Source: Alphaproteobacteria bacterium | Lineage (GTDB): Bacteria; Pseudomonadota; Alphaproteobacteria; RF32; CAG-239 | Length of the DNA: 64,000 bases | Direction: 5' to 3' | NCBI GenBank assembly: GCA_017470165.1 | Contig: JAFUEX010000023.1 | Location: forward strand, 25,331-89,330 | Part shown: positions 3,697-57,715 of the stretch, in pieces | Position numbering within the stretch: the stretch's first letter is position 1 | Layout: the number at the start of each line of letters is the position of its first letter | The notes under the pieces: generated by a model | The model's input: only the letters and a program-made list of their open reading frames with translations | What the model was told of the DNA's origin: nothing | Databases searched by the model: none | Program-made: the position numbers and the translations under genes

Positions 3697-3716
3697 GTTA
3701 CAACCGCTCCACACTA

Positions 3717-4457
3717 TTACAACCTGCCACCACCCGTAGCATATTCAATCACCGTAAAACCCAACGGGTTCTTCAGCCGCTCACCGTACGCCACTTTTTT
3801 ACGCCGGTACCCCACTTTCATTGATGCGGTAAAATACCGCACTTCCGGCTGTGCCGAATCTGGATAAGTATCCTCGGTTTGGTATTCCACCTGCCAAATA
3901 TTGTCGGCAATTTCACTTACCGAAAGTATCTTAACCTTGCGTTCCAGCCCTTTTTGACGGATCAGCGACAGTGCCTCGCCCATCACCTCGTTGCGAAATT
4001 TTTGATAAACCGCTTGACTTGAACTCTCTTGAACCGGACCACCGACATCCCACCGCGCCATAGCCGTATCGGCATTGCGGGTAAAAGAATTGCGCTGTAG
4101 CACATAATCCCGCACAAACACCTCCGTAATGGATTTGCGGTTGCGCAGCTCAGAGGTTATTGGCTGAATATCATACACCTGATCGGCGCGGTTATGGAAG
4201 GTCAACAAAAAGGGCTCCACCCGATACAACGGCACAAGCTGAAAAATTGCCAGCAGCAAAACAATATTGCAGCACAAGCTCAACGCGGTGATTACAGCGA
4301 AGGCGCGCGCCGTCCACAAATAACGTTTTTCCGCAACATTAGCCACAAAGATAGTGCTGGCAGCATCTCCGCGCGGAGCGGGACGCCTTGCACCGGCCGG
4401 ACGGCGTCCGGCTATCATTTTGGGTTGCTGTGACTGATCGTATCTGACCTCTTCCAT
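3717..4457 (-). CDS. VirB8/DotI-like T4SS inner-membrane protein (copy 2)
   Basis: 246 aa. A basic Pro/Arg/Ala-rich N-terminus (about 45 residues) is followed by one membrane helix (about 50-75), then a periplasmic domain ending in the VirB8/TrbF signature NPLGFTV-x-EY. VQESSSQAVYQKF and WQVEYQTEDTYP fit the VirB8 NTF2-like fold. The ATG at 4457 has AAGG 5 nt upstream. It sits between the small lipoprotein and the DotH-like gene, where DotI/IcmL would be. It is a clear paralogue of the protein at 4768-5502: both share the TM-plus-NPLGFTV plan but diverge elsewhere. Members of this family assemble as an inner-membrane ring linking VirB4 to the core complex. Confidence 0.8.
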   Translation of the reverse strand: MEEVRYDQSQQPKMIAGRRPAGARRPAPRGDAASTIFVANVAEKRYLWTARAFAVITALSLCCNIVLLLAIFQLVPLYRVEPFLLTFHNRADQVYDIQPITSELRNRKSITEVFVRDYVLQRNSFTRNADTAMARWDVGGPVQESSSQAVYQKFRNEVMGEALSLIRQKGLERKVKILSVSEIADNIWQVEYQTEDTYPDSAQPEVRYFTASMKVGYRRKKVAYGERLKNPLGFTVIEYATGGGRL

Positions 4458-4767: not shown

Positions 4768-5502
4768 TCACTCTTCGTTTTGGCTGTAGCGCAGAACCGT
4801 AAAGCCCAACGGATTAATCAACCGATAGAAAGAAAAGGCGCGCGCGGGATTAAACACCGTAGTCAAAGAGGCGTTCCAATAACGAGTTTTGATGGACTGT
4901 TCTCCGCCTTCGGTAGTTCGGGGAGTATATTCATAAGTTTTGAACTTTACGTGCCATACACGCGACTGGGCGCCGCCTTGCCGTGATATTGAGATAATTT
5001 CCGTCGATATTGAGCTGCTGCTTTCATTAATGGCTGTCCATTGCGGCAACGCTTTGCGAGCAAACTCGCCATAAACTCGAACATCCGACAGAAAATGCAC
5101 CATACCGCCGATTTGCCAACGCGCCCCCATCTCCATTTTGTCGGGGATAAGAGTATTGCGCAGAGTGATATATTGACGGATGTACATTTTCATAAGCTCA
5201 TCGCGTGAGGCCATATCCGTGGCAACAACTTCACTTTCGACCAAATTGTCGGAATCGCTGTTGCGAATAAGCAACAACGGCTCCACCGTGACGCGAGGAG
5301 CCAAGCGAAACAGAGCCAAAGACGCCAATATCAAAAAACCGATTGACATTGTGGCTATCAAAATAAAAAAGCGCGAAATCCACAAATAGTAGGTCAGCTT
5401 GGCCGAATTAGCCTTACTGTCCAAGTGATCCAAATATTGCACCTGCGAGGCGTTAGAAGCGGCTATCGCCGGTTTAACATTGTTATTTTCCAGAGAATCC
5501 AT
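4768..5502 (-). CDS. VirB8-like T4SS inner-membrane protein (copy 1)
   Basis: 244 aa: about 40 polar residues, one TM helix (about 42-68), then a periplasmic domain with WQIGGMVHFLSDVRVYGEF, WHVKFKTYEYTPR and a C-terminal NPLGFTVLRY, the VirB8 hallmark. ATG at 5502 is chosen because GGAAAG lies 5 nt upstream; the ATG at 5514 has no ribosome site. It follows the 1385-aa exported protein by 20 nt and precedes a probable internal promoter and the lipoprotein. Type IVB systems carry two DotI-family proteins, DotI and the shorter DotJ; here both copies are full length. Presumed inner-membrane scaffold. Confidence 0.8.
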   Translation of the reverse strand: MDSLENNNVKPAIAASNASQVQYLDHLDSKANSAKLTYYLWISRFFILIATMSIGFLILASLALFRLAPRVTVEPLLLIRNSDSDNLVESEVVATDMASRDELMKMYIRQYITLRNTLIPDKMEMGARWQIGGMVHFLSDVRVYGEFARKALPQWTAINESSSSISTEIISISRQGGAQSRVWHVKFKTYEYTPRTTEGGEQSIKTRYWNASLTTVFNPARAFSFYRLINPLGFTVLRYSQNEE

Positions 5503-5522
5503 ATTTCTTTCCATAAATTATA

Positions 5523-8500
5523 TTAATAATTAGAACAATAGGCTTCTTCAAGGTCTTTATACTCACCGGTGTTTTCCTCCTTAACCTTTTTACGATATTT
5601 ATCCGAGGCCTCTTTATTGGCTTTGGCGGTTTTCAGCTCTTCTTCCGGATTATTGCCATCATTGGAGCCCACCGAAATTTGCAAATGCCCGTCAGTGTCC
5701 TTGTGCATAATGTTTATCAGCTTTTCAATTTCGGCTTTGCGCTCGCGGGCCGGCTGATTGTCGTCTTCCACATCTACCGAAGCCAAAACGGCAAGTGTTT
5801 TCTCCAAGGCGGCATTTTTGGCCTGTTTTAAGCGGTCTACCGTAATTTTATAATCATTAGCATTGCTGATATCATAATTATCCTGCACCTCAAAACCAAA
5901 TGCCGACAACTGCGATTTGAGCTCGGCCATATCCGCATCATATTGTTCTTTCATCGCATCAAGATTTTGTTTGATTTTCTTTTCAGCCTCAACTTGTCCC
6001 AAAAAGTCGCCGATTTGATTGCGCGAAAGTTCGGCATGAGCGGCCAAAGCGATTTGATTTTTTTCCTTCTTTTTGAGTTTTTTGCTGTTTTTGGCTTCGG
6101 CGGCAAACAGATTGTTAAATGTCTCGTAAACTGTGGGCTTAAACGACAGATTATTATCCTCGTCGGCATCCAATATCATACCAAGTTCGCTGTAGTTGCG
6201 GCAGTACTGCTCCACCGGTTTAACCTTGTCACCGCCCAAAAGCTCGCTGACACCGGCCGTAATTTTACCCAAAGTTGACGGCATATTAACTTTATCATCT
6301 TGGATGGTGAGATAAGGATTGCCTTTTTTCATCCGCATCAACAGACATTTGGGCAGGCCGGCAGCTTTGATATCGCTGCGCTCGACATACTCAGCCTCGT
6401 CCATATCAAACTCGTAGACATCGCGCTTGAGGTCGTCGTCATACTGCTTGGTGAGGTTGATATCCATAACCGTGGACGAATCTTCGACTCGACAGGGGAA
6501 AATGCCGCCCCGCAAAAAGGCAACCGGCTCACAGCCTTGATTGAGCGCATCCTGAAGATCAAAACGTGCTTCAATAAAAGCATTATCCTGCAGCATAAGT
6601 TTCCATATTGCGGGAATCTCACTGCCGCAGTTCAAGAAATCGCCGCGCGATATTTTCAACAGCTCTTTGAGAGCTTTTTCTGCCTTTTTCTTTTTGTCGG
6701 TAGCTGCACTCAAAGCCTTTTCAAACAACGAGGCCACCATTCCCGCCGGCGTAATGCTCAGCAAATTTTTCTTTGCCTCTTTCAGGTCGTCGCGTTTTTT
6801 CTTGTAGCGTTCATATTGCTTGGCGGTGTAAGGCTTAACATTGGCAAAATCCACGCTGTCAAAATGGAAAATTTCCCGCACCGGAGGCTGACTGAAATCG
6901 TCCATAGTCATAGGCGCCTTCAAATCGCGGCCGCGCGGCAAAGCTCCGACGAAAAATCCTTCGGTTTCGGGTGAGGTGTCCAAAAGCTCCAAGTCTGCAA
7001 AAGCCACCATTCCGATTATGTCATAGCCCATAACGCTCTTGGCGATGGTGAGCGCCTTAAGCTCGTCAATCATCTGCCGGTGAATCTCAGCAACTCGATT
7101 GACTTGAGATGAGGAATGCGGCAAATACAACTCGTCACCCAAACTTTGGATTTCGGCATAGGCATGGTCAACTGCCTGATCAATGGCGGCATTAAGGGCC
7201 TCAATCACCTCACCGGAAGCCGCATCAATGGCTGTGCGGATAATGTCGGCTGCCTCGGCGTCAGCACCGCTCAGCGCGGACAAGGCTGTGGTAAAGCGCT
7301 CATCCACCGCTTTAACGTATTGCTCATAAGCTGATTTTTTGTCTTGCGAAAAAGCGTTGACTACTGCACGAAGTCCGATGTTCAGTTTCGATGCGGCACC
7401 TTGTCCTTGTTCTTGCGCCGCCAATTTGGCCTCGCGAATCTCCTCATCAACCTCGTCTAACTGACTTTGAAAAGCCTCAACACTGGCTTTTTTCTGTTCA
7501 ATTAAGGCCTGTAATTCTTTAATATTGCTGGCGGCCAGATTTTGCGAGTTAGCCTTGGATACATCACTTACGGCTTGCGCATAGGTCGGCAGCTCGGGTA
7601 TGATGTCGTTATCCTCAGAAAAATCACCGGTATCAATTGCTGCCTTGCGCGATTGAAAAGCATCATCCTCGGATTTGGCCGAAATATCGGACACTTCGTC
7701 GCTCAAATCCTTTATCTGTTTACTGATATAATCAATCTCATCAACAATTTTCTGACGCTTTTCCAGCAAAGCCGCCGGTATAACCGTCATCATATCTTTG
7801 TTATTTTGAGCAATCAATGCTGCTATGGCACTTTCACTGCCATAATAAAGTTCATTAAGACGGGTTTGATATTCGGTTTGTCCGATTTCCAAATCCGCAT
7901 CTTGCAGCTTGGAAATAAAAATATCCACCACATCGGCCTTAGTGTAGCGCTTCAGATAAGATTTAATATTACTATATTTGCGCCGCAAATATTGATTATA
8001 AAAGATTTTGGTATCATTCCAAATAAATTTTTGATTGGTCGGCGTACCCCACTTTTGCGGATCGGCACTCAAAACTTTGGCCGCCTCGGCACCTATCTGC
8101 CAAGATATCATCGTGGCTCGACGATTTTCATCCTGCGTTTTTTGCGATGCGGTGGCGCCGACTTTATTGCCGCCGTTTTTGCCATCAGTTCCTTTGGTGA
8201 GTTTTTTAACTTGAGTTTCGGCACCTTCCAAATCAGCCCCCTTACTTTGGTCGAACAAACCTTCAGTATCCAAAGTTTCGGTCTCCATATCTCCGTTTTG
8301 TAATGACGAATCATCGGCATAAGATATCTGTCCGTCGTCGGTTACTTCGACACTGGTTTGTGCAGCTTTGGCCACATCATAAGCATCCAATGCCCAGCCG
8401 GATATACCTTTGCGCAGGTCATATTGATTGATATCGGCGAGGGTGAACTTTTGTCCCGACCAAGCGGCATCATAATTTTGGAAATAGCGTTTGACATAAT

Positions 8501-9680
8501 CGGTACCGCACTGATTAGATTCGGTGAGTAAATTCAGCTTTTTGGCATGATGCTCAAGCATATCCTTATACTGCTGGGCCGTTTCCTTATATTTATCCAA
8601 ACCTTTGATAAAATTATGTGCCGCAGCTGCCTCCTGCAGGGCTTCTTCTACCTCGGACAAAGCTCCGAAAGCGGAAATTTTGGAAGCATTTTCAATCAGG
8701 GGCGAGGTATTTTCAACTGCCGCGGGAACAGAAAATTGCATAGTGGTCCATTTGGGAGAACCGGTGGAATTATCCTCCGAGGAAGTATCATCAATTTCTG
8801 ACAAATCAGTGAGATTGCCGGCGGCATTTTTATAAAGCACCTGCGCCGAGGCAATGGTCTGCCGCTGGTTCAGCTGATAGTTAAAAACCGGCATTTCTGC
8901 AAAAGGAGCCAGTGAAATATCTTGGCTTGAATCATCGGCATCCTCAGGAGTAATCAAAATCTCAATGGCCATCATAACCTGCAATGCTTTAAGCTGAGCC
9001 TTGAGGGCGGCCACCCGCTCCCACATTTTTACCACATTGTCCAAAGTGGCCAAAGCATAGCCATAGCTGTAGAGCATCTCATTGCCGCCACCATCAGTGG
9101 TGGCGGGGATGCCGCAAGCGCTGCCCTGCCCTTCAACACAGCATTGCCGCGTGGTAATTATGGCTTTGCCCACCGGCCCGTCATCGCGCATCGCCTGCTT
9201 CAGCAATTGGATAGAGGCATAAATGTTGTAAATATTGTCCATATAAAAACTGCGGCGGTTGGCATCAACCAGCAGCTTTTCACTGGGATTGTTATACAAG
9301 AGCAAAGTATCGCGCATTTTAAGCCCAACGCGGCCGATATTCATACTTGATACCGGTGTGGCGCATATAGTGGAATTAATCGCATTACCGAGCTCGCTTT
9401 CGTAGTTAATGTTTACTCCTATAGCATTAAAAGACGAACGCATAGACAACAATGTGCTGTTAACATCGTGCTGAATTTGCGCTGCCAACGAGGTAATATT
9501 GGCGAGATTGCTGGTTACCAGACGTCCGGTTTCGACAATATCCTGCCCAAAATTGATTACCGGCGATACCGGAATGGTATTATATGCCTCTTCTATAGCC
9601 TTTGACAACAAGGCCGCAGACGGTTTGGGAGCAAATGCCAAAAGCGCGGATAAGATTATAATTTCCAGTTTTTTGTTCAT
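5523..9680 (-). CDS. giant exported coiled-coil protein of the T4SS locus, no family recognised
   Basis: 1385 aa with a signal peptide (MNKKLEIIILSALLAFAPKP, cleavage near SAA). The first 250 mature residues are helical and contain Cys clusters (TRQCCVEGQGSACG). The rest is mostly predicted coiled coil, charged and Ala/Glu/Lys/Gln-rich, notably residues about 640-800 and 1200-1385, with only scattered Cys. There are no membrane helices after the signal peptide. GGAGGT lies 4 nt before ATG 9680. It is in the minus-strand operon between VirB4-side genes and VirB8. The N-terminal pattern loosely recalls VirB5/TrbJ (exported helical proteins), but it is several times longer. Its role is unknown; a periplasmic or surface scaffold, or a secreted substrate, are possible. 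Confidence 0.8.
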   Translation of the reverse strand: MNKKLEIIILSALLAFAPKPSAALLSKAIEEAYNTIPVSPVINFGQDIVETGRLVTSNLANITSLAAQIQHDVNSTLLSMRSSFNAIGVNINYESELGNAINSTICATPVSSMNIGRVGLKMRDTLLLYNNPSEKLLVDANRRSFYMDNIYNIYASIQLLKQAMRDDGPVGKAIITTRQCCVEGQGSACGIPATTDGGGNEMLYSYGYALATLDNVVKMWERVAALKAQLKALQVMMAIEILITPEDADDSSQDISLAPFAEMPVFNYQLNQRQTIASAQVLYKNAAGNLTDLSEIDDTSSEDNSTGSPKWTTMQFSVPAAVENTSPLIENASKISAFGALSEVEEALQEAAAAHNFIKGLDKYKETAQQYKDMLEHHAKKLNLLTESNQCGTDYVKRYFQNYDAAWSGQKFTLADINQYDLRKGISGWALDAYDVAKAAQTSVEVTDDGQISYADDSSLQNGDMETETLDTEGLFDQSKGADLEGAETQVKKLTKGTDGKNGGNKVGATASQKTQDENRRATMISWQIGAEAAKVLSADPQKWGTPTNQKFIWNDTKIFYNQYLRRKYSNIKSYLKRYTKADVVDIFISKLQDADLEIGQTEYQTRLNELYYGSESAIAALIAQNNKDMMTVIPAALLEKRQKIVDEIDYISKQIKDLSDEVSDISAKSEDDAFQSRKAAIDTGDFSEDNDIIPELPTYAQAVSDVSKANSQNLAASNIKELQALIEQKKASVEAFQSQLDEVDEEIREAKLAAQEQGQGAASKLNIGLRAVVNAFSQDKKSAYEQYVKAVDERFTTALSALSGADAEAADIIRTAIDAASGEVIEALNAAIDQAVDHAYAEIQSLGDELYLPHSSSQVNRVAEIHRQMIDELKALTIAKSVMGYDIIGMVAFADLELLDTSPETEGFFVGALPRGRDLKAPMTMDDFSQPPVREIFHFDSVDFANVKPYTAKQYERYKKKRDDLKEAKKNLLSITPAGMVASLFEKALSAATDKKKKAEKALKELLKISRGDFLNCGSEIPAIWKLMLQDNAFIEARFDLQDALNQGCEPVAFLRGGIFPCRVEDSSTVMDINLTKQYDDDLKRDVYEFDMDEAEYVERSDIKAAGLPKCLLMRMKKGNPYLTIQDDKVNMPSTLGKITAGVSELLGGDKVKPVEQYCRNYSELGMILDADEDNNLSFKPTVYETFNNLFAAEAKNSKKLKKKEKNQIALAAHAELSRNQIGDFLGQVEAEKKIKQNLDAMKEQYDADMAELKSQLSAFGFEVQDNYDISNANDYKITVDRLKQAKNAALEKTLAVLASVDVEDDNQPARERKAEIEKLINIMHKDTDGHLQISVGSNDGNNPEEELKTAKANKEASDKYRKKVKEENTGEYKDLEEAYCSNY

Positions 9681-9698
9681 ATCTACCTCCATTGTTCC

Positions 9699-11147
9699 CT
9701 ATGGCATATATATATCGTCACCGGCATCCTCATCAGGGGTTTCGGCCGTGACGGCGGAAGTCTCGTCGCTGGTGTTGGTGTTATCGGCAGAAGACGAATC
9801 GATTGAGACGGATATTTTCACCTCGGATGTGCCTGATGCGCCGGATGGTGCTGATGAGTTTTCAGTTGATGTTGAGGCTGCCGTTTCAGTTTTTTCTTTT
9901 TCTTTGTCTTTGGGTTTTCTAATCTTGTAATTGCAAACATCCAGCACCAAAGAAGTATCTCGGTTGTATCTACGGTCAACCTTATAGTCGATGTTGCGCT
10001 CAATTGCGCCCAATACTTGCGCCTCCAAGGCCATCAACTCCATATCAATAATCTTTTGGATAGTCTCAATCTGCATCATAGTATTGTCAATCATCGGCTG
10101 TACGGCATCAACCTTACCCTCGGCAGTTGAACTCAAATCTTTGTTCGCCGCATAATTATTGCTCGGATTGTTCAAATCGGCGATATAGTCATTGGCTTTG
10201 TTGATACCCACAACCACCAACTCCTTGCGGTCGCCCTGCACATTGCGACGGCGGCGCATAGAACTGGACACGGTATCGGCAGTATTGACATCCGCGGTAT
10301 ATTTAACTTGGGTTTGGCTGATAATCTCATCGGGGGTCGAAGTGGGGTTCTTAGGTTGCTTGTCCAATTCGGCCAACTTTTTAATATTATCGGAATGACG
10401 CTGGGTTACCACGGCAATCTCGCTGGTAAAACGCGAATCAATATTGGCAATCTCTGCCACCATTTCAGCATCAACCAATTTGCGGTCGACCTTGAGCTGT
10501 TTGATTTCGCTGTCTAATTCGCGATGGCGGTCGTTATAATAGCGCTTATCTCCATCATTGCCGTGTTTAAGGTCTTGATTTTCCTGTTCAAAAGTTTTCA
10601 GCGCTTTTTCGGCCATTTCAATCTTTTGATCCAACATCACTTTACGATTTTCGGCGTTTTCTTTAATCCGTTCGACTTGAACCTCGCGGTCTTCATTCAT
10701 ATGACTGAGCATAATGGCATCTTCGGTAATTGCCTTGGAGAGCACTGCCGCCTGATAGGCTTTGGAGTTAATCACATCCTTCTTTTGCTTTTTTGCCCAG
10801 TTGAGATAACCAACGGTTTTTTCCACCCATTTAGGACACTTTTTTTCACCATCCTTGGTTTTGTAGGTACTGCTGCCTTGCTGCAAGCAAGCACTTACCA
10901 TAGCACGGCCCTTTTGAATGGACTCCAATCCTTTACCGACAATTTGTCCAAACCATGTGCGATTAATATAGGAAATTCCCTGTTGCACTTTTTGAGCGGC
11001 ATTTTGAATCCACGTACTAACCTCGCCGGCAGTCTCTGAGATGCTTATCTCAAACGGTATCACCGCCTTTGCCTCACGCAACGGCAGTCCCGCACTATAA
11101 AGTGAGAGCATAATCAACAATAAAAATCCGCTTATGTTTTTTTTCAT
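9699..11147 (-). CDS. exported coiled-coil protein with acidic Ser/Thr tail, VirB5/TrbJ-like start
   Basis: 482 aa. A signal peptide ends near REAKA. Residues 30-120 (an EISISETAGEVSTWIQNA start, then two Cys) resemble the helical N-terminus of TrbJ/VirB5-type exported proteins. Residues about 130-280 form a long heptad-like coiled coil. The last 70 residues are low complexity: a Lys/Glu stretch, then Ser/Thr/Ala/Asp. ATG at 11147 has GAGGAT 7 nt upstream. It ends 18 nt before the giant 1385-aa gene starts. Function is unknown; co-transcription with T4SS genes implies an extracytoplasmic accessory component. Confidence 0.75.
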   Translation of the reverse strand: MKKNISGFLLLIMLSLYSAGLPLREAKAVIPFEISISETAGEVSTWIQNAAQKVQQGISYINRTWFGQIVGKGLESIQKGRAMVSACLQQGSSTYKTKDGEKKCPKWVEKTVGYLNWAKKQKKDVINSKAYQAAVLSKAITEDAIMLSHMNEDREVQVERIKENAENRKVMLDQKIEMAEKALKTFEQENQDLKHGNDGDKRYYNDRHRELDSEIKQLKVDRKLVDAEMVAEIANIDSRFTSEIAVVTQRHSDNIKKLAELDKQPKNPTSTPDEIISQTQVKYTADVNTADTVSSSMRRRRNVQGDRKELVVVGINKANDYIADLNNPSNNYAANKDLSSTAEGKVDAVQPMIDNTMMQIETIQKIIDMELMALEAQVLGAIERNIDYKVDRRYNRDTSLVLDVCNYKIRKPKDKEKEKTETAASTSTENSSAPSGASGTSEVKISVSIDSSSADNTNTSDETSAVTAETPDEDAGDDIYMP

Positions 11148-11172
11148 CTGTTTATCCTCTGCCGTTGGTTGG

Positions 11173-11733
11173 TTATGGCCGGTTGCAAGTATTTTTGGTT
11201 TGGTCATAGATATACTCGTTAAAAATACCGGAATCCAAACTGCTCAGCTTAAAAATACTATCCAGTGCAGCAGTGCGTGCCTCCAGTGATAAAACAATAT
11301 TCAACCGGTCGGCAATATAAGCCTTGCGCTGCAAAATATCTTTATCAAGAATTGCCTTTTCACTGCTGCGGGCTTTGGAAGATGCCGGTTTTTCCTTGTC
11401 AAATTCAAACAATGATTTGGCAGCTTGCAAATAAAGTTCGGTACTATAGCGCGAAAGCAAAAATGCCGTATTTTCTTTGGTGCCGAGCATATCATATTCT
11501 CCGGGCTTCATCGTTTTGATAATACGGCAACGGTTTTCAGCATCGTCATAAATATCTTTGCTCAAAGGAGTAACCAATTGAGTTTCCGGCCGGCCGCGCA
11601 CCGGTGATGCATCACCGATGGTGGCGGTGCCCATACCGGCAATGTTAAGCTCGACAGCCAAAGCAGCAGTGCTCCACCATACGGACAAAAGCATAGCAAA
11701 AACCAAATTCAAAAAATTATTTTGCAACGTCAT
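11173..11733 (-). CDS. small exported protein of the T4SS operon, unknown family
   Basis: 186 aa with a signal peptide (cleavage near STAALA). The mature part carries two Cys, one about residue 68 (NRCRIIK) and one near the C-terminus (NTCNRP), which could pair. A helical second half contains SLEARTAALDSIFKLSSL. ATG at 11733 is supported by AAGGAG 7 nt upstream; a longer frame from 11769 lacks such a site. The start overlaps the end of the Ser-rich gene by 17 bp, indicating translational coupling. No family recognised. Confidence 0.7.
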   Translation of the reverse strand: MTLQNNFLNLVFAMLLSVWWSTAALAVELNIAGMGTATIGDASPVRGRPETQLVTPLSKDIYDDAENRCRIIKTMKPGEYDMLGTKENTAFLLSRYSTELYLQAAKSLFEFDKEKPASSKARSSEKAILDKDILQRKAYIADRLNIVLSLEARTAALDSIFKLSSLDSGIFNEYIYDQTKNTCNRP

Positions 11734-12592
11734 CTGATTTCTCCTTAATCGACGCCGATTGGTCAACATTGATAAACTTTCGGCGCGTCAGTTGTGCACT
11801 TTCGGCAGACAATTCCTTATTTGGACTGTCAGTTAAAGCCGGCGAAGTTGTTTGCGAAGCAGAATTGGATGTTGATGTTGCGGCGCGGGTAACGCTGCGA
11901 GAAGAAACCGCCCCTAAGGCCGAGGAACCGATTGCACTCTCAGATGATGAAGTTCTGCCGCTGATTGATGTATCTTTCGAGCTTGTGGAAGAGCCTGTGG
12001 AAGAGCTGGCGGAATTGGTGTTGCGCTGCAGGCTGTCCGAACCGGAAGCTGAGGAAGAACCGCGGGTGGTGCCGGAGTTATCAGAGGAGGCAGAGCGCGA
12101 AACTCCTGTATCAGTGTTGGAAGATGCACTTCCGGTTGATGAGCCCCCGCGGTCTGATAACGAAGTATTTTTGGGTTTGTCTTTCTTTTCTTCCTTAACA
12201 AGCCCCAAACGCCGCACGGCATCAATACCGGCATTGCGCGCTTTATCAATAGCAGAATTCATTGCATCGCGGCGACGGTTTTCCTCGGAGTTGATGGCAT
12301 CACTCAAGGCCTCGCCGGTGGCAATACGCTTGGCTTTTTCATACATCATTTCTGCGTTATCAATTTCGGCCTGAACCATGGCATCAGCCTCGTAAATGGG
12401 GTCAAGAATCTTGCCGCTGGACACCTCTGCCAATTTTTGCGAAATTACCTCATATTTGGCAGACATTTTTTCAAACACACCGTTAGCTTTCAGCAGGGTA
12501 GTCTGAATAATATCAGTGCCGGCCAAAGGACTTCTGACCCAAGTAAAACTTGCGGCAGTAATGAATAAATAAATCAATATTTTTTTACTCAT
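11717..12592 (-). CDS. exported protein with helical head and Ser/Thr-rich tail
   Basis: 291 aa. A signal peptide (to about residue 24) is followed by a helical domain (about 30-130) with KANGVFEKMSAKYEVISQKLAEV and Ala/Asp/Glu-rich helices. Residues about 140-270 are dominated by Ser, Thr, Gly and Ala in the style of SSTGSSTSSKDTS, a probably disordered linker. GAGGAC lies 8 nt before ATG 12592. The segment before the tail resembles VirB5/TrbJ-type helical exports, but that is inference. It overlaps the next gene by 17 bp and sits between two other exported proteins of the operon. Confidence 0.72.
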   Translation of the reverse strand: MSKKILIYLFITAASFTWVRSPLAGTDIIQTTLLKANGVFEKMSAKYEVISQKLAEVSSGKILDPIYEADAMVQAEIDNAEMMYEKAKRIATGEALSDAINSEENRRRDAMNSAIDKARNAGIDAVRRLGLVKEEKKDKPKNTSLSDRGGSSTGSASSNTDTGVSRSASSDNSGTTRGSSSASGSDSLQRNTNSASSSTGSSTSSKDTSISGRTSSSESAIGSSALGAVSSRSVTRAATSTSNSASQTTSPALTDSPNKELSAESAQLTRRKFINVDQSASIKEKSDDVAK

Positions 12593-12611
12593 CGGTCTTG
12601 TCCTCTACAGT

Positions 12612-13286
12612 TCATTTACGTGCCGGTTTTATCAGTTCTTTGTCTTTGTCATCAACTTTTTCATTTAATATAACTTCGTTGAACAAAGTGCTCACAAAAT
12701 CGGAACGGTTTATCATCGCTTTGGATTTGAGCGCCTTAAGCAACAGCTCTGTACTGTCGGCGGTCAAGGTATTGTTGGCCTCCATCAAACAACGCGAGCT
12801 GTTTTGTTCGTCCATACACGTTTCGGCGCTGCTTTTTTCCAAAACATTGTCCGGATCAGGCTGGCCATCAGCCCCCAAAGCCGGCATTGAGCCATAACCG
12901 GCCTCATTGTTAGCCTTGTCCTCGTGCTTGCCGGCTGCCGACATATTGTTGACGGCAAAAATGATGTTGTCGCGCGTAAACTCTCCCATAATTTGCTGAC
13001 GCTCATCACCATAAAGCTGACGTCTGGCGTTATAATCATAAGCCAATCGTTTGACACAGTCCAAGGTCAGCTCGGCTTTGCCGTCTAAGCATAAACCGCA
13101 ACGTATTACCATCTCTTTGGGCAAATACAGCTCCCCTAACGGCCCGCGGCCGTTGCATAAATCTTTGGCGTCATCTTTGCTAAGACCGACCGCGGCCTTG
13201 GTTTTTTCGTCCAACGCCCCGACATTGGCTGACAACAACGTCAGCACCAATCCCAGCCCTGCAACAATGAAGTTATTTTTTATCAT
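12612..13286 (-). CDS. exported Cys-containing protein of the T4SS operon, unknown family
   Basis: 224 aa with a signal peptide ending near NVGALD. The mature protein has CNGRGPLGELYLPKEM, then CGLCLDGKAELTLDC, giving four Cys within about 30 residues, and a later pair in ETCMDEQNSSRC. The tail is Lys/Asp/Glu-rich. ATG at 13286 has AAGGA 8 nt upstream; a frame from 13322 is possible but would overlap the upstream gene by 50 bp instead of 14. The Cys pattern suggests a disulfide-stabilised periplasmic protein. The 712-aa neighbour shares the LYLP/FYLPSNM segment followed by CC or CG, so the two may be related locally. Function unknown. Confidence 0.7.
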   Translation of the reverse strand: MIKNNFIVAGLGLVLTLLSANVGALDEKTKAAVGLSKDDAKDLCNGRGPLGELYLPKEMVIRCGLCLDGKAELTLDCVKRLAYDYNARRQLYGDERQQIMGEFTRDNIIFAVNNMSAAGKHEDKANNEAGYGSMPALGADGQPDPDNVLEKSSAETCMDEQNSSRCLMEANNTLTADSTELLLKALKSKAMINRSDFVSTLFNEVILNEKVDDKDKELIKPARK

Positions 13287-15411
13287 TGCTATTGTCCTTT
13301 GTTCCGGCATGGATATCAGCATTTTCTGCCGTATCCTGACTTATCTTAAAGGCCATGGTGTCACTGAAAGCCTTAACCGTCTGCTCGCGAGCCCACAAAC
13401 GGCTTATCTCGTTGAGCCGACTGCCGATTTGCAGCTCCATATTGGTAATGGCCGCCCAAGATGACTGCACGTCCGGATTTTTGGCATTAATCACCGGATC
13501 AATCCTATCTTCTTTAAAAGTGAAACTGTCGTTATAAGCATTGACGGCATCGATATAAGCCGAGGCCAGATATTCGGCATAGCCGTTGCGCATCTCGGCG
13601 CTGGCCTTGTGCACATCGGCGGCAGCAGTGGTTTTTGTGAGGTCGGGATTGCCGATTTCGCGGCGAATACAACTGTAAAAATGCTCATCATCCTTGGATA
13701 TCTCCGTACCATGATCAGCAAACATCGCGCTGTTGTAGCGGCTGATACAGGTGGTAAATTTTCCCTCATCCAACACCGTCTCCGAGTTTAAGTTGCAGCA
13801 TACCGCCATATTGCTGGGCAGATAAAACACGCCGTTGACATCGGTGCCACTTTTGGTCTTGGCAACATCAACCTTTTCACGCAAAGCCGCAAAAGCAACT
13901 TTTTCCGAACGATGGATGCTGTAATTGGCACTTACTTGCTGGCACTCTCGGGATTTTCTGCAATAATCATTGTATAACGGATCAGACAAATCCCCTTTTG
14001 CGCATTCTCTCTTGGCTATATTGCAGTCCATCTCCTTCGTGGTTGTTTCCAATTGACAAGCCCTATTCAAATCTTTGCAAAGCTGGACATCTTCGTCCTT
14101 TTTCATCTTAAAGTTGGTCAGCAAATCATCTACCACCGCCTCGCAGCTGGGGTCATTGCCATAGAGCGGCTGAATCTTGTACTCGTGCGAGGTGTCTACA
14201 TCGCCGCAAGTTGCCTGATATATAGAACAAGCGGTATTGGCGGCGGCAGTATTCCCCGTTGAAGAGTTCCCCGTTGCAGAGGTGTCACTACTTTTATTGG
14301 TCAAACACTCTTTGTCATAGTCATCACAGGCTTGCTTGTTACCTTCCTTGTCCATTGCGCAAGCCAATTGGTTGGCCGTACAAGAAGCACCGATGCATTC
14401 ATAATAGCTAATACAGGCCTGCTTTTGCGCTTTTTCATCATTTTTGCCGTCCGCGCCTTTGATCCCGAACTCGCAATCGGCATGATAGTTTTCACAGCCG
14501 CGAATATCCATGTCAAACTCTTTGATATCAAGAGAAATCTCGTTCATCCGGTTGTTCCAAGCATTCACGCTGCTCACTACATTACGCACTTGGTCGTCAA
14601 CCATTTCGGCCTCACCGACCGTCGCATAGCAAACAAGTCGCTCCGCGCGGGCTTTAACCGCACCGACCCGATATTGGCACTCCCGAACCATACTGCTGAG
14701 TTTATACTTATAGTCAGAAATCTGCCGCTGCACGTTGCGGATGTTTTGCTCATATGCCGCGTGTTTGGCCATGGCAATCTCCAACTTGTCACGGGTGTTG
14801 CGAATAGAATTGGTCACCGCATTAGATTCTGTATGATTTTGCAAATTTTTCAGCTCTTCATTAAGGCGGTCAATTTCATCGTGAACTCTTTTACGGTCTT
14901 CGTGATAACGCTCTTTCTGCTCTTCAAACTGTTGTACAACATTTGTAGTCTCGCGGAAGTAATCCCGACAGAGCTTGAAGGTATCAGCAGCATATTCTGC
15001 AATGTCTTTGCCCTCGGCGATGTAATCTTTAATGCGGTTAAGGGTTTCGGCGGCGTGCTCAACCGCATCCAACGCGCTGTTAACCATATCCAAAGTGTCG
15101 TAATAATATTCGTTAATGTCATAGAGAAACTGGTTAATATCGGCCACGTATTTGTCATACTTAGACTTTATCTTGTCGAATCGAGCTTTTTGGTCTTTGT
15201 AAAAATTAGAAATGCTTCTTACTTTGTCGCCGATTGCTTTGACTATCGTCCAATCGGTGATGGCAGTTTTTTTCTCGGTAACCCAACGGTTGGCCTCGGT
15301 GATGGCATTGGTAACCGTGGCTGCGATAGCACCAAAGTCCACCGTAATAGCGGCCTGCGCCGAAATCGGCAGCAGACAGGCAATCAAAAACGCCGCAATC
15401 CTAAGTCTCAT
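13273..15411 (-). CDS. exported Cys-rich coiled-coil protein, TrbJ/VirB5-like N-terminus
   Basis: 712 aa. Signal peptide ends at SAQA. Residues 25-150 are helical and begin ITVDFGAIAATVTNAITEAN, close in style to TrbJ/VirB5 exports. Residues 150-260 form a coiled coil. Residues about 290-530 are strongly Cys-rich (over 20 Cys, as in CISYYECIGASC, CDDYDKEC, CRKSRECQ), followed by FYLPSNMAVCCNL and a helical end. ATG at 15411 has GGGAGA 8 nt upstream. It is the first gene after VirB4 (78-bp gap) and overlaps the next by 14 bp. The Cys content implies oxidative folding in the periplasm or outside the cell. No family assigned. Confidence 0.75.
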   Translation of the reverse strand: MRLRIAAFLIACLLPISAQAAITVDFGAIAATVTNAITEANRWVTEKKTAITDWTIVKAIGDKVRSISNFYKDQKARFDKIKSKYDKYVADINQFLYDINEYYYDTLDMVNSALDAVEHAAETLNRIKDYIAEGKDIAEYAADTFKLCRDYFRETTNVVQQFEEQKERYHEDRKRVHDEIDRLNEELKNLQNHTESNAVTNSIRNTRDKLEIAMAKHAAYEQNIRNVQRQISDYKYKLSSMVRECQYRVGAVKARAERLVCYATVGEAEMVDDQVRNVVSSVNAWNNRMNEISLDIKEFDMDIRGCENYHADCEFGIKGADGKNDEKAQKQACISYYECIGASCTANQLACAMDKEGNKQACDDYDKECLTNKSSDTSATGNSSTGNTAAANTACSIYQATCGDVDTSHEYKIQPLYGNDPSCEAVVDDLLTNFKMKKDEDVQLCKDLNRACQLETTTKEMDCNIAKRECAKGDLSDPLYNDYCRKSRECQQVSANYSIHRSEKVAFAALREKVDVAKTKSGTDVNGVFYLPSNMAVCCNLNSETVLDEGKFTTCISRYNSAMFADHGTEISKDDEHFYSCIRREIGNPDLTKTTAAADVHKASAEMRNGYAEYLASAYIDAVNAYNDSFTFKEDRIDPVINAKNPDVQSSWAAITNMELQIGSRLNEISRLWAREQTVKAFSDTMAFKISQDTAENADIHAGTKDNSNDKK

Positions 15412-15489: not shown

Positions 15490-17919
15490 TCAAATATTTA
15501 AATATTTTGTAACAAAGTTTTCTTCACCGTATTCCTTCACCAATTCTTCTACCAGCAATACATTTTTGCGGCCGGAATTGTATAGTTTCAGATAGGGACC
15601 CAACCCGCTCAAATCCACGTCCAAAATCACCGACTCACCGGTTGAGGGACGCGACAACAATATCGCATAAGGAAAATCGCGATAAGAACGGCCGAAAATA
15701 AAGTCAGTCTCCGCGTCGGTGAGGTTCCAGTTGGCATAGTCTTCCGGCATGGCCTGCGGGTTGCGGAAAAAGATAACCGTTTGACACTGGCCGCGGATAA
15801 CCTCGCCTACACCCAAACGATCAATAATACTGGGCTGTTGAAAGGCGCAAAGATAGGCCTGCCGTTTTTTACGTCCTTCTTGCAAACCGATGATAAAATA
15901 ATCTCTAAACATCGGGTGTTTGAGCATCGGCGCGGTCTCATCAATCATAATCAATGAGGGAACTCCGGTCTCGCCGGTTTCGGACTGAATACGGTGCATA
16001 ATATAGCTGATGACTGCCGGCGCCAAGGTTTCGTCTTCAAAAATATGCGTAAAATCAAACGCCATAAACCGTTTGCTTTTCAAATCCAAACTGTCGGTAT
16101 CGCCGTTGAAAATGCTGCCGTATTGTTCGGGATTAACCCATTTAAACAACTCGCGGCGCATATTTCCGGTCGGCGAAAAACAGCTTTTGTAAAGATTGGA
16201 CATAACCCGCTCTTCGGGCCGCAGGTAATCAAATGCCGTAGTAACGGCACGGGCAATCTCTTTTTCGGAAACCGCATCATCCACCAAAGTTATCGAGCGC
16301 AGCCAGCGGCGCAAAAAAGCGCGGTTGTTGGGAGTGTTGTCACAGTCAAAGGGGTTTAACGATACATTTTTCTCATCGCCGTCAAAACCGATATACGCCC
16401 CTTGCACTGCGTGAGTAAAAATGCGCGCACCCAAATGGCGGTCGAAAAAGAACACCCGCAAATCAGCATGGCGCATCGCCTGACCGGCCAAAAAGGTAAG
16501 CAATGTGGTTTTACCTTGACCGGTCGGACCAATGATACAGCAGTGTGCCACCGCCGAATCCTCGGATGAAACGTGAAACTGGAAACGATATGCCGAGCCT
16601 GACATTGTGCGGAAAACCGTGATGGCGCCATTACCCCAGTCGGATTTGGAAAAACCCTCTGAGGGTTTATCAAACGACACCGAACAAGCCACCACCCTTG
16701 AGAGATAGCGGTAGTTGCGCGGCAAGGTCTCATAAGTGGGAAACTGATTGAAAAACGTGGCCTGCGTAACCCAGCCCTCGCGCACCGGCGTCACACCGAA
16801 CAAACGACAAATACGCTGCACCTCGCTCTCGGCAAAATCCAGCTCTTCAGGGCTCTCTCCTCGCAAAATCATCGCCATAGAATATTCGGCTAATGACTGA
16901 TGGTTGGCATCGCTGTCTTCAATCGCCGCCAGCACCTCACCGTATTGTTCAATCACATTACCAGAAAAGCTGGTAATGCGTGCCATACGCTGTTGTTGCA
17001 TAAGCAATGCGCGTGCCTTGGGCTTAAACATCGGGTGAATATTGTGCAACAACACAATCTCGCAGTCTAAGGCCAGCAACGATGCAGTCATAGCCTCGTC
17101 ACAATAGTCGCCGGAGTTGCGGATGCCCATAACGATCTCGTAGAGTTCCTTATCGCCGGAAAAGAATTTGATAATGCCGTTTTCACCGGTAAAATGAATA
17201 TGGTCGGCGGTGAGCATTTGGTTGAGCTGAGCACCGGTGGCACCGCGCACCAAAGGCTGGGGACGCGACACCGGCGAACATATTTTGGCATACAGCGAAA
17301 AAGGACTGTCGCTTGCCGGTATACCTTCTCCTTCGGCCAAGGGCTCAACTCCATACTCGCTCAGTGTGGCAGTGAGAGCTTGCGAGGCATAATTCAAATC
17401 TTTGAGCGCATCTTTTCTATCAGGCACCGAAAGCACGATATAGTGGGTATTGAAAAACACCCGACTGACATTTTCCTGCCATATATCCGAAACCTTTTCC
17501 AACAGAGGATTGTTAAAGTTGCGCACATTTTCTTCCAGCGGCACTTGCTCGCGCACGGTAATCACACGACAATCTATCTGCAAATCGCCCATACCATCAA
17601 TCCAAGATTTGCGAGCCTCCAGCATTGCTGCCACCTTTTCGCTTTTGGCAAATGCCAAATCGACGCCGGCCACCCGAAACACCCGCGCCAAAGAGCCGTT
17701 ATAACAGCGAATCGTCATCCCGTCGGACAGCAGCTTTTCAAAAGGCATAAAATCGGACACTCGCGACTCATTGGGGTGCGGCAACACCAAAAAACCGAAC
17801 TTGGTTGCCCACAAAGCAGCAAAAGCCGCAGCAGCGATAAACCCCACAATGGCGACAATTACCTCCGCTCCGGACAAACCCTCAACAAACAAGGATAAAA
17901 AATCATAATCAGGGCGCAA
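15490..17919 (-). CDS. virB4: VirB4 family T4SS ATPase
   Basis: 809 aa, the usual VirB4 length. An N-terminal hydrophobic segment (about 12-42) precedes the CagE/TrbE/VirB4 domain. Walker A GPTGQGKTT is at about residue 463 and Walker B LIMIDETAP at about 658, followed by FQQPSIIDRLGVGEVI and the C-terminal RecA-like half ending in LSRPSTGESVILDVDL. The start is TTG at 17919: AGGGG lies 6 nt upstream and it overlaps the VirB3 stop by 11 bp, the normal virB3-virB4 coupling. VirB4 hydrolyses ATP at the inner membrane to drive assembly and substrate transfer. This is the best-supported gene of the locus. Confidence 0.95.
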   Translation of the reverse strand: MRPDYDFLSLFVEGLSGAEVIVAIVGFIAAAAFAALWATKFGFLVLPHPNESRVSDFMPFEKLLSDGMTIRCYNGSLARVFRVAGVDLAFAKSEKVAAMLEARKSWIDGMGDLQIDCRVITVREQVPLEENVRNFNNPLLEKVSDIWQENVSRVFFNTHYIVLSVPDRKDALKDLNYASQALTATLSEYGVEPLAEGEGIPASDSPFSLYAKICSPVSRPQPLVRGATGAQLNQMLTADHIHFTGENGIIKFFSGDKELYEIVMGIRNSGDYCDEAMTASLLALDCEIVLLHNIHPMFKPKARALLMQQQRMARITSFSGNVIEQYGEVLAAIEDSDANHQSLAEYSMAMILRGESPEELDFAESEVQRICRLFGVTPVREGWVTQATFFNQFPTYETLPRNYRYLSRVVACSVSFDKPSEGFSKSDWGNGAITVFRTMSGSAYRFQFHVSSEDSAVAHCCIIGPTGQGKTTLLTFLAGQAMRHADLRVFFFDRHLGARIFTHAVQGAYIGFDGDEKNVSLNPFDCDNTPNNRAFLRRWLRSITLVDDAVSEKEIARAVTTAFDYLRPEERVMSNLYKSCFSPTGNMRRELFKWVNPEQYGSIFNGDTDSLDLKSKRFMAFDFTHIFEDETLAPAVISYIMHRIQSETGETGVPSLIMIDETAPMLKHPMFRDYFIIGLQEGRKKRQAYLCAFQQPSIIDRLGVGEVIRGQCQTVIFFRNPQAMPEDYANWNLTDAETDFIFGRSYRDFPYAILLSRPSTGESVILDVDLSGLGPYLKLYNSGRKNVLLVEELVKEYGEENFVTKYLNI

Positions 17920-18199
17920 ATTTATTCCCCTTTACTTTATAGAGATTAACCGAGGTTTTGTTAGCCTTGCCGAACGCCTGAATCATCGCGGAAATATGCG
18001 GTTCTTTCACTCCCAAAAACACACAAAAAGTATGACCGGCAATAATCATCGCCATAAACACGATAGGGTTAACATTAACCGCGCCGACCATCATAAACAG
18101 CATAGGAAACTGAATGCCGACATTAAGCATAACCGGCACAAACGGCCCCCAAAGTATCTTCGGAGGATTAGCCACTGCTTTCAGTATCATCTCGCGCAT
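17909..18199 (-). CDS. virB3: VirB3-like T4SS inner-membrane protein
   Basis: 96 aa. Starts MREMILKAVANPPKILWGPF, matching the VirB3 'K-x-x-x-PP-x-x-x-G-P' entry, then two close membrane helices (about 20-65) and a cytoplasmic tail with HTFCVFLGVKEPHISAM, like the VirB3 H-x-x-x-r-x-x-x-x-k-DP segment. ATG at 18199 is chosen because the upstream 25 codons do not look like VirB3; AGGGAG lies about 14 nt upstream and GGA about 6 nt. It overlaps virB4 by 11 bp. VirB3 anchors VirB4 at the membrane. First gene of the main T4SS operon. Confidence 0.8.
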   Translation of the reverse strand: MREMILKAVANPPKILWGPFVPVMLNVGIQFPMLFMMVGAVNVNPIVFMAMIIAGHTFCVFLGVKEPHISAMIQAFGKANKTSVNLYKVKGNKFAP

Positions 18200-18250
18200 A
18201 GCGTTCCAACAGGCTCCCTTATATTTACAATTTATGATAAAATATATGTT

Positions 18251-18266
18251 TCGGTTATGCAACCGA
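18251..18266. promoter_or_regulatory. perfect dyad upstream of virB3
   Basis: TCGGTT-ATGC-AACCGA, a 6+4+6 inverted repeat, lies 52 bp before the virB3 start in the 165-bp gap after the ROK kinase gene. It could be an operator or a leader hairpin for the T4SS operon. I found no convincing -35/-10 pair nearby, so its role is open. Confidence 0.3.
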
Positions 18267-18364
18267 GGCAGCAATCTTATCCTACTGTTATTTATAATAG
18301 CCTTTTTTTATGAAAAATTGGTTAACTCGCGCCCATACTTAATAACAGGTCGGCTGGTCTTTTT

Positions 18365-23136: not shown

Positions 23137-23310
23137 ATGTTTCAAGTCCGTTTTTTAACAAAAGTTCTCATCGTTGGGGTGATTATAACATATAAATTAC
23201 TTAAAAAGTGTTACACTTTTTTGATTTTTACATAATTTTATAGCCCCTTACGCACTCAGCGATGACATAAAAAAGGAGCCTTCTCTCTTGCTGTCACCCC
23301 TTTTTCTCCC

Positions 23311-23339: not shown

Positions 23340-23378
23340 CATGGGGCTAAAATAATTATTAATCAAAATCATTATGTG

Positions 23379-23771: not shown

Positions 23772-23807
23772 AATTAAATGTTTAATCTTTAAAAAATCAT
23801 TATTATT

Positions 23808-24197: not shown

Positions 24198-24223
24198 ATT
24201 TATTGTATCTGCTTCACCTGACA

Positions 24224-24258
24224 AAACCGCACGCCTTCTTGAAGTCTTGCGGTTTTTT
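24224..24258 (+). terminator. Rho-independent terminator after paralogue 2
   Basis: AAACCGCA ... TGCGGTTT stem (8 bp) with a nested CTTC/GAAG, followed by a run of T. It separates copy 2 from the promoter of copy 3, which begins 6 bp later. Confidence 0.8.
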
Positions 24259-24263
24259 GCATC

Positions 24264-24292
24264 TTGACAAATGCGAGTTTTTTGTCTAAAAT
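24264..24292 (+). promoter_or_regulatory. strong sigma-70 promoter for paralogue 3
   Basis: Consensus TTGACA (24264-24269), 17-nt spacer, TAAAAT (24287-24292). The spacer contains ATGCGAGTTTTTTGTC, nearly identical to the spacer of the promoter at 33191-33219 before an ACP-like gene. Confidence 0.8.
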
Positions 24293-24331
24293 AAGCACAA
24301 ATTTAATTATTAATCATTAAAAAACATTATT

Positions 24332-55280: not shown

Positions 55281-55367
55281 TAACTGATTGAGAGTGCTTG
55301 ATTATTTATTTTTCAATAGTAAAATGGGAAAAACGTTATGGTAAAATACTGTCGAGGAACCGCAAAA

Positions 55368-57693: not shown

Positions 57694-57715
57694 GTTGAAT
57701 TAGAGTGAGGAAAAG

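What the first reader, a model, noticed from the sequence alone, without database searches (positions are those of the whole stretch)
5523..15411. Ten kilobases of six consecutive exported proteins with no recognised family inside a T4SS operon
Six genes with signal peptides (1385, 482, 186, 291, 224, 712 aa) lie between virB4 and virB8, tightly packed with overlaps. At least three have VirB5/TrbJ-like helical starts. VirB5 is a minor pilus component in known systems, so this could be a lineage-specific enlarged surface apparatus or a set of secreted substrates.
Basis: partly seen in the sequence, partly recalled or inferred. Interest (0 to 1): 0.72.

Follow-up and report, generated by a model that had tools for sequence, protein, structure and literature searches.

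The report
Expanded VirB5-like tip-protein gene block
Gut bacteria of one alphaproteobacterial family carry, in the middle of a chromosomal type IV secretion operon, a fast-changing block of usually four to six exported proteins that appear to be multiplied, fused and enlarged relatives of the single protein that normally caps such a machine and touches the target cell.

Summary
In detail: six exported ORFs lie in one block between virB4 and two virB8 genes, and none reaches a Pfam or NCBIfam cut-off. The T4SS is widespread in a family of gut and rumen Alphaproteobacteria. VirB4 is 65-90% identical (72 of 83 genomes), but the block is hypervariable: ORF1 is 35% identical where VirB4 is 90%. 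In 40 of 79 loci that reach virB8a, the slot is 7-10 kb with 3-6 genes; 175 of 176 have signal-peptide-like starts.

The slot is the virB5-virB7 position. Profile comparison links ORF1 to ORF2, ORF4 and ORF5. The ORF1 profile finds the VirB5 of a plasmid relative. ORF6 is a fusion of a small slot protein with a large exported protein; elsewhere these are separate genes. Several VirB6-like genes are also present.

Best reading: an enlarged, fast-diversifying VirB5-type stalk/tip apparatus for contacting target cells. No known fold was recovered, ten intermediate slot proteins gave no Pfam VirB5 hit, and function is inferred. New variant of a known kind.

The parts
17909..18274 (-). VirB3-like ORF
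   Evidence: Position and small hydrophobic sequence; tblastn match upstream of virB4 in 63 of 63 relatives' loci with at least 4 kb upstream; no Pfam or NCBIfam hit
15490..17919 (-). virB4 ATPase
   Evidence: PF03135 1.3e-13, TIGR00929 1.4e-107 (the latter below its equivalog-level cut-off); match in 72 of 83 genomes of the order, own included
13273..15411 (-). ORF1, 712 aa, exported; positional VirB5 with long coiled-coil part and C-terminal Cys domain
   Evidence: First gene after virB4; profile hits the VirB5 of an Erythrobacter plasmid at 9e-10 in a 400-ORF set; hhalign to ORF5 prob 90 and, C-terminus, to ORF4 prob 93
13273..13869 (-). Cys domain of ORF1 (motif PxxMAxxC...C), residues 523-720 of the 720-aa frame
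   Evidence: AlphaFold pLDDT block means 74-95 over about residues 531-700; homologous to ORF2 and to gene 2 of other genera
12612..13286 (-). ORF2, 224 aa, exported stand-alone copy of the ORF1 Cys domain
   Evidence: hhalign to the ORF1 Cys domain prob 97.6 and 98.7; reversed controls prob 0.13-0.17
11717..12592 (-). ORF3, 291 aa, exported, helical N-terminus and Ser-rich tail; least conserved member
   Evidence: Only 4 members in the pool at the threshold used; matches the ORF1 coil region at prob 96.8, run without a reversed control
11173..11733 (-). ORF4, 186 aa, exported; genus form of a ~220-aa class found at this place in other genera
   Evidence: hhalign to the 220-aa class prob 98; to ORF1 C-terminus prob 93, E 4.9e-8
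9699..11147 (-). ORF5, 482 aa, exported; paralogue of ORF1
   Evidence: hhalign ORF1-ORF5 prob 90, E 1.9e-7, reversed E 0.16; 65 members after filters; TrbJ TIGR02780 8.4e-6 in 1 of 65 members
5523..9680 (-). ORF6, 1385 aa, exported giant; fusion of two ancestral genes
   Evidence: 50 members of 1200-1560 aa in the pool, 922-1989 aa in the loci; junction shown by split homologues
8931..9680 (-). ORF6 N-terminal module (residues 5-254)
   Evidence: Separate 223-232 aa genes in L053, L055, L060, L062 (in L051 part of a 514-aa ORF), 261 aa in L166
5523..8855 (-). ORF6 C-terminal module (residues 280-1389)
   Evidence: Separate 1200-1224 aa genes in L053, L055, L060, L062; 636 and 669 aa in L166, L169, matching only residues ~321-629 and ~1208-1386
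4768..5514 (-). virB8 copy a
   Evidence: PF04335 2.3e-15
3717..4457 (-). virB8 copy b
   Evidence: PF04335 3.4e-21
2026..3714 (-). virB9
   Evidence: PF03524 CagX 4.1e-14
1..2017 (-). N-terminal part (672 residues) of a 1102-aa beta-flower protein; VirB10 (1582 aa) and VirB11 follow outside the window
20926..23145 (-). VirB6/TrbL-like 739-aa protein, one of several in the genome
   Evidence: PF04610 2.6e-4, below cut-off, in the protein scan; 1.9e-7, over cut-off, in the genome search, 4 matches in the genome

Best explanation
The block is an expanded virB5 slot of a chromosomal T4SS. An ancestral VirB5 gene (plus a second exported protein beside it, as in plasmid relatives) was duplicated in tandem and extended by coiled coils and a Cys domain; a small slot gene fused to a large exported one to make ORF6. 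The proteins are exported by Sec to the periplasm. By analogy with R388 they would sit on the VirB6 base as the stalk or tip and be pushed out to contact the target cell. Fast divergence would reflect changing targets or escape from recognition. Shown: position, signal-peptide-like starts, profile links of ORF1 with ORF2, ORF4 and ORF5, fusion origin of ORF6, family-wide synteny with hypervariability. Supported but weak in sequence: homology to canonical VirB5. Inferred: assembly on VirB6, surface exposure, adhesion.
For: Slot position: in plasmid relatives the gene right after virB4 matches VirB5 (Erythrobacter PF07996 6.8e-7, above cut-off; Sphingosinicella 0.016 and Microvirga 0.17, below). 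ORF1/4/5/6 profiles against 400 ORFs in 30 loci from outside the family: 25 ORFs hit at E<=0.01, all in the slot or, where virB8 was not seen, within 9 kb of virB4, none elsewhere; the Erythrobacter VirB5 is hit at 9e-10, and the first gene after virB4 in L189, which is followed by a 6-TM 315-aa ORF, at 2e-8. A blind PF07996 scan of 82 family genomes gave 18 sub-cut-off hits, 9 of them in the first two genes after virB4 in 6 genomes (coordinates). Profile links with reversed controls. ORF6 fusion. Signal-peptide-like starts in 175 of 176 slot genes. All 16 genomes that match the ORF6 core, of 385 searched, also carry this VirB4. Several VirB6-like genes: TrbL matches in 62 of 65 family genomes, 1-5 per genome. 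R388 stalk = VirB5 pentamer on VirB6 pentamer (PMC9259494, passages).
Against: No PF07996 hit above cut-off in any of 82 family genomes, and none at all in the window's own genome. Ten slot-position proteins from loci outside the family (L165, L166, L178, L188, L189, L191) gave no PF07996 hit even at E<=1, L189's included. AlphaFold gave no confident VirB5 fold (ORF1 pLDDT 65, pTM 0.35; ORF6 fragment pLDDT 70, pTM 0.65) and Foldseek found nothing at E<=1e-3. Direct hhalign to canonical VirB5 is weak (prob 0.03-36); ORF4's value fell from 36 to 7 when L189 was added to the reference. Not all pairs of slot proteins match each other: ORF2-ORF5 prob 0.09, ORF2-ORF4 3.6, ORF4-ORF5 57, ORF1 N-terminus-ORF4 0.08. 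ORF6N and ORF3 links are weak. Of the 25 outgroup hits, the two in L182 and L183 match only the coiled coil of ORF6. Most sub-threshold Pfam/NCBIfam hits are generic coiled coil. No VirB2 match in the own genome, so a pilus is not shown.
Confidence: 0.58

Rival explanations
1. The block encodes periplasmic accessory scaffold (an extra cage or central cylinder between inner membrane and core), as in expanded T4SSs, and is never surface exposed.
For: Looks Sec-exported, helical, very large, next to two virB8 genes; other components are also enlarged (1582-aa VirB10 and 1102-aa protein with beta-flower repeats, extended VirB6-like proteins). No VirB2 match. Dot/Icm uses a VirB5-class protein (IcmX) in a central channel (PMC12857230, passages).
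Against: Buried scaffold would be expected to evolve with its partners, yet the block diverges far faster than VirB4 and mostly faster than VirB8/VirB9. This rival overlaps with the best explanation in homology.
Confidence: 0.25
2. The six proteins are substrates exported in two steps (Sec, then T4SS), like pertussis toxin through Ptl, acting outside or in target cells.
For: Signal-peptide-like starts, large and hypervariable; the known Ptl route uses periplasmic substrates (PMC12857230, passages).
Against: Inside the operon at the VirB5 slot in every locus that reaches virB8; ORF1 linked to a plasmid VirB5; no enzyme or toxin domain above cut-off in Pfam or NCBIfam; conserved blocks across 50 ORF6 members.
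Confidence: 0.1
3. The block is a collection of unrelated exported coiled-coil proteins; apparent paralogy is a coiled-coil artefact.
For: Iterated profiles drift between groups (the ORF5 profile recruited ORF1); many hits are SMC-like coils; several pairs do not match.
Against: Reversed-profile controls collapse (E 0.16 against 1.9e-7); the Cys domain with fixed motif is shared; 25 of 25 outgroup hits are at the slot or close behind virB4.
Confidence: 0.07

Closest known systems
VirB5/TrwJ/TraC of minimized T4SSs (R388, pKM101; PF07996)
   Same: Gene position directly after virB4, signal peptide, helical mature protein; the ORF1 profile finds the VirB5 of a plasmid relative
   Different: One protein there (226 aa in R388); here 3-6 proteins, the giant up to 1989 aa, with Cys domains and fusions; below the Pfam cut-off
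Bartonella Trw with multiplied trwJ (VirB5) and trwL
   Same: Multiple sequence-variable VirB5 copies in one operon; there TrwJ1/TrwJ2 are surface exposed and bind erythrocyte band 3 (PMC3406051, abstract and passages)
   Different: Trw duplicates the trwJIH unit and VirB2; here no VirB6-like gene is in the block and one copy is fused into a giant. No sequence comparison with Trw was made
Helicobacter Cag CagH-CagI-CagL
   Same: Tight operon; CagL considered VirB5-like, CagI and CagL form a complex, shared C-terminal motif (PMC3320882, passages)
   Different: No sequence link was tested; here a conserved C-terminal motif was looked for only on ORF6 (39 of 50)
Rickettsiales rvh T4SS
   Same: Alphaproteobacterial, five VirB6 proteins, duplicated components (PMC2653234, abstract and passages)
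   Different: rvh lacks virB5; here the VirB5 slot is expanded
Dot/Icm IcmX (VirB5 class)
   Same: VirB5-class protein on a VirB6-class pentamer (PMC12857230, passages)
   Different: Single protein; no sequence test done here

Membership tests
VirB5 (PF07996) | Match above the curated profile cut-off | tested here: not met
   None of the six matches; 0 of 82 family genomes above cut-off, 14 of 82 with sub-cut-off hits; 0 of 10 slot proteins from other loci at E<=1
VirB5 (PF07996) | Gene position between virB4 and virB6/virB7/virB8 | tested here: met
   Between virB4 and virB8 in each of the 37 of 40 loci that reach virB8 and the 40 of 79
VirB5 (PF07996) | Sec signal peptide | tested here: met
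   175 of 176 slot genes by a simple heuristic (control 12 of 65); SignalP not available
VirB5 (PF07996) | Homology to accepted VirB5 proteins | tested here: inconclusive
   ORF1 HMM to Erythrobacter VirB5 9e-10; direct hhalign weak, E 1.9e-4 for the ORF1 C-terminal region, 0.027 for ORF6N
VirB5 (PF07996) | Three-helix bundle with globular appendage (TraC fold) | tested here: inconclusive
   Low-confidence models, no Foldseek hit at E<=1e-3
VirB5 (PF07996) | Location at stalk or pilus tip | not testable with these tools
   Needs cryo-ET or immuno-labelling
VirB6 (PF04610) | Multiple transmembrane helices with TrbL domain | tested here: not met
   No TrbL match and no TM segment beyond the signal peptide in ORF1-6; VirB6-like genes lie elsewhere
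T4SS effector or toxin | Recognisable effector or enzyme domain | tested here: not met
   No such hit above cut-off in Pfam or NCBIfam
Conjugative T4SS | Relaxase in the genome | tested here: inconclusive
   PF03389, PF03432, PF08751 without a match in an 88.9% complete genome; other relaxase families not tested; PF02534 (VirD4) matches on two other contigs

The most novel reading that the evidence does not exclude
VirB5 and VirB6 have expanded together: several VirB6-like proteins (5 candidates in this genome, 4 with a TrbL match) and 4-6 VirB5-slot proteins build a hetero-oligomeric stalk and tip, replacing the homopentamers of R388, so that each position carries a different, separately evolving contact protein including a ~1400-aa giant.
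Probability: 0.25. Interest if true: 0.82.

Novelty: new variant of a known kind. Interest (0 to 1): 0.62.

Why it matters
It gives a natural series, from a VirB5 plus a second exported protein on plasmids, through five separate genes (four of 225-261 aa, one of 636 aa, in L166), to fused giants, for a component usually treated as a minor single protein. It points to a contact apparatus in gut and rumen Alphaproteobacteria, known here mostly from metagenome-assembled genomes, whose targets are unknown. It also makes a testable question of whether T4SS stalks can be hetero-oligomeric.

Tried and rejected
Pfam and NCBIfam on the six ORFs and on aligned groups: nothing above cut-off for the six, mainly coiled-coil-like hits; DUF4141 in 6 of 42 ORF1 homologues (best 8.7e-4), 1.6e-4 in L165 and 8.1e-7 in L191, all below its cut-off or not shown above it, and in L191 over the signal peptide. 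PF07996 in ten slot proteins of loci outside the family: none. VirB6 identity for the block: rejected, no TM segments. The second exported gene of the plasmid relatives (422-453 aa; in Microvirga it follows a 228-aa three-TM ORF) looked like VirB6 by position but lacks several TM segments; its link to ORF6N is only suggestive (hhalign prob 10; HMM hit over residues 11-77 only). Searching plasmids for more homologues gave one or two records, the queries' own included. ORF3 as the split-off half of the 220-aa class: weak (prob 17), not claimed. Positive selection: not supported, dN/dS stays below 0.3 where measurable. Recombination: in L122/L123 dS is 0.27 for virB4 but 1.87, 2.85 and 1.61 for ORF1, ORF5 and ORF6; ORF3 (0.28) does not differ, and virB8/virB9 (0.71-1.17) also exceed virB4. 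Of 28 further pairs with VirB4 above 95.5% identity, 6 had virB4 dS below 1; their slot dS is 0.8-2.3 times that of virB4. Exchange is only suggested. Conserved neighbourhood upstream of virB3: not found; ROK, aroK, xer and the nearby virB6 in 1-2 of 63 loci.

Rows dropped before counts or models: from the ORF1 group (54) the alignment used 42 (first-position genes without L070 and L108); ORF4 group 67 to 53; ORF5 group 89 to 65 (length and position filters, since the profile drifts into ORF1); ORF6 N-terminal alignment without five giants that lack the module, plus four split genes. Of 78 named loci, 39 do not reach a virB8a match. L037-L114 and L115-L154 partly come from the same genomes, so they are not independent.
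Full report
What is there. The window is part of a 1.45-Mb, 88.9% complete genome (26 contigs) whose relatives are gut and rumen Alphaproteobacteria, including 'Azospirillum sp. CAG:239' and many RUG MAGs. On the minus strand run a VirB3-like ORF, virB4, six exported ORFs, two virB8 genes, virB9, and beyond the window edge a 1102-aa beta-flower protein, a 1582-aa VirB10 with beta-flower repeats and TrbI domain, and a VirB11-like ATPase. About 17-26 kb beyond virB9 is a cluster of VirB6-like proteins (431, 542, 943 and 1039 aa; TrbL matches for 431 and 943, for 431, 943 and 1039; 542 has seven hydrophobic stretches but no Pfam match); a fifth lies at 20926-23145. PF02534 (VirD4) matches lie on two other contigs. 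No VirB2 match and no match to three relaxase families was found.

Conserved place, variable content. VirB4 is found in 72 of 83 genomes of the order (own included; G039 in two pieces, G095 a contig-end fragment), otherwise at 65-90% identity; 6 of 24 other genomes of the same genus lack it. ORF1 matched in only 11 of 82 family genomes, the window's own included, and at 35% in the genome whose VirB4 is 90% identical. In 40 fetched relatives' loci, all 37 that reach virB8 keep virB4 - several exported genes - a giant of 922-1989 aa - virB8; one of them (L151) lacks virB8b and virB9 nearby and one (L146) has virB8a in two ORFs. In an overlapping set of 79 loci (window included), 40 reach virB8a: 24 have 4 slot genes, 7 have 5, 6 have 6 and 3 have 3, spanning 7.0-10.0 kb; 175 of 176 slot genes have a signal-peptide-like start against 12 of 65 ORFs further downstream. 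Between L115 and L116 the slot genes have dN/dS 0.06-0.26, virB4 0.01 and virB8/9 0.02-0.05, so the slot genes are real and constrained, but less than the machine.

What the proteins are. (a) Position: R388 has virB4-virB5-(EexN)-virB6-virB8 (the second and fourth are annotated only as type IV secretion system proteins; the second is PF07996 at 2.8e-35). The closest VirB4s on plasmids (35-38%: Microvirga, Sphingosinicella, Erythrobacter) are followed by one 251-273 aa exported gene, which in Erythrobacter passes the VirB5 cut-off (6.8e-7) and in the other two does not (0.016, 0.17), and then (in Microvirga after a 228-aa three-TM ORF) by a 422-453 aa protein without the several transmembrane segments of VirB6. 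(b) A blind PF07996 search of 82 genomes gave 18 hits at E<=0.01 in 14 genomes, none above cut-off. By coordinates 9 of the 18 fall in the first two genes after virB4 (G003, G026, G030, G037, G047, G071); 6 lie on a contig other than that of the virB4 found, and 3 are in genomes not covered. (c) Profiles of ORF1, ORF4, ORF5 and ORF6 searched against 400 ORFs in 30 loci from outside the family (27 unnamed, 3 plasmids) hit 25 ORFs at E<=0.01, all in the slot, or within 9 kb of virB4 where virB8 was not seen, none outside; two of them (L182, L183) match only the ORF6 coil. In L189 the ORF1 profile hits (2e-8) the 273-aa gene after virB4, which is followed by a 6-TM 315-aa, a 50-aa and a 242-aa ORF: a canonical-looking order, named by size and topology only, and Pfam finds no family in the 273-aa protein. 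(d) hhalign with reversed-profile controls links ORF1-ORF5 (prob 90, E 1.9e-7; reversed E 0.16), ORF1 C-terminus-ORF4 (93, 4.9e-8; reversed 0.69), ORF1 Cys domain-ORF2 (98.7, 4e-15; reversed 0.34), and ORF4 to the 220-aa class of other genera (98, 7.9e-13; reversed 0.48). ORF1 is the hub: ORF4-ORF5 reach 57, ORF2-ORF4 3.6 and ORF2-ORF5 0.09, and the ORF1 N-terminus does not match ORF4 (0.08). ORF6N-ORF4 is weaker (24-25), and direct comparison with canonical VirB5 is weak (at best prob 36; ORF1 C-terminal region E 1.9e-4 against reversed 0.67), though in register for ORF1 and ORF4. The E-values are for single comparisons.

ORF6 is a fusion. In four loci (L053, L055, L060, L062) residues 5-254 of ORF6 correspond to a separate 223-232 aa exported gene, and residues ~280-1389 to a separate 1200-1224 aa gene; L051 shows the small module in a 514-aa ORF. 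In a more distant family (L166) they are 261 and 636 aa. The fusion joint falls in a low-confidence stretch of the model (model residues 227-322, i.e. 251-346 of ORF6). In a 385-genome sample of the class, 29 genomes matched the ORF6 profile at E<=1e-5; 16 matched parts of the core and all 16 are among the 39 with this VirB4 at E<=1e-60; the other 13 matched only the coiled coil around model positions 541-789.

The Cys domain. A ~150-aa domain with P-x-x-[MLIV]-A-x-x-C and a second Cys occurs at the ORF1 C-terminus, as ORF2, and as gene 2, sometimes twice in one protein, in other genera (46 pattern hits in the pool, a few of them plainly not this domain; homology). It is a confident part of the ORF1 model (block pLDDT 74-95 over about residues 531-700; a coil near 171-230 is equally confident).

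How it probably works. In R388 the stalk is a VirB5 pentamer on a VirB6 pentamer, and the growing pilus is proposed to push VirB5 outward (PMC9259494, passages). In Bartonella, multiplied VirB5 copies (TrwJ) bind a host receptor (PMC3406051, abstract and passages). By analogy the expanded slot here builds a larger or more varied stalk/tip for target contact. Position, export-type starts, profile links, fusion and hypervariability are shown; homology to VirB5 is supported but below curated thresholds; assembly, exposure and adhesion are inferred. Structure prediction did not settle it: ORF1 pLDDT 65/pTM 0.35, ORF6 (residues 25-1224) pLDDT 70/pTM 0.65, no PDB fold at E<=1e-3.

Known or new. Searches for RF32 with Alphaproteobacteria and type IV secretion (0 papers), CAG-239 with Alphaproteobacteria (3 papers, listing only; titles unrelated to secretion), rumen with Alphaproteobacteria, VirB4 and type IV secretion (1 paper, a plasmid review, listing only), VirB5 with duplication or paralogy terms (33 papers, 12 listed) and VirB5-like or multiple-VirB5 phrases (20 papers, 15 listed) showed no title or abstract start describing this system; the library lacks most subscription papers. 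RF32 and CAG-239 as GTDB names for this clade are recalled, apart from the record title 'Azospirillum sp. CAG:239'. Rickettsiales T4SSs share multiplied VirB6 but lack VirB5 (PMC2653234, passages). The finding is therefore a new variant of a known kind: a VirB5-slot expansion on a scale not seen in the passages read here.

Noticed in passing
window 1-2017 and L156:5291-13347: VirB10 of 1582 aa and a neighbouring 1102-aa protein carry 8 and 9 matched stretches of the beta-flower family PF21785 (plus PF21784), an unusual core component.
   Followed up: partly
L155:4456-7575: 1039-aa VirB6-cluster protein with a weak M23 peptidase match (9.2e-5, below cut-off) and a sub-cut-off TrbL match: possibly a channel protein fused to a peptidoglycan hydrolase domain.
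   Followed up: no
window 53640-63860: Type IVb-like pilus cluster with TcpQ, secretin, PilO, T2SSE and T2SSF matches.
   Followed up: no
window 23376-24712: Three neighbouring ORFs of 131, 129 and 126 aa; at least the last two look like tandem paralogues.
   Followed up: no
same-genus genomes G059, G084, G085, G089, G093, G099: Genomes at 96-100% completeness without a VirB4 match; G059 also has no TrbL match, so the system may be dispensable.
   Followed up: no
L122/L123: virB4 dS 0.27 but ORF1 1.87, ORF5 2.85, ORF6 1.61 (virB8/virB9 0.71-1.17): possible replacement of part of the operon by recombination.
   Followed up: partly
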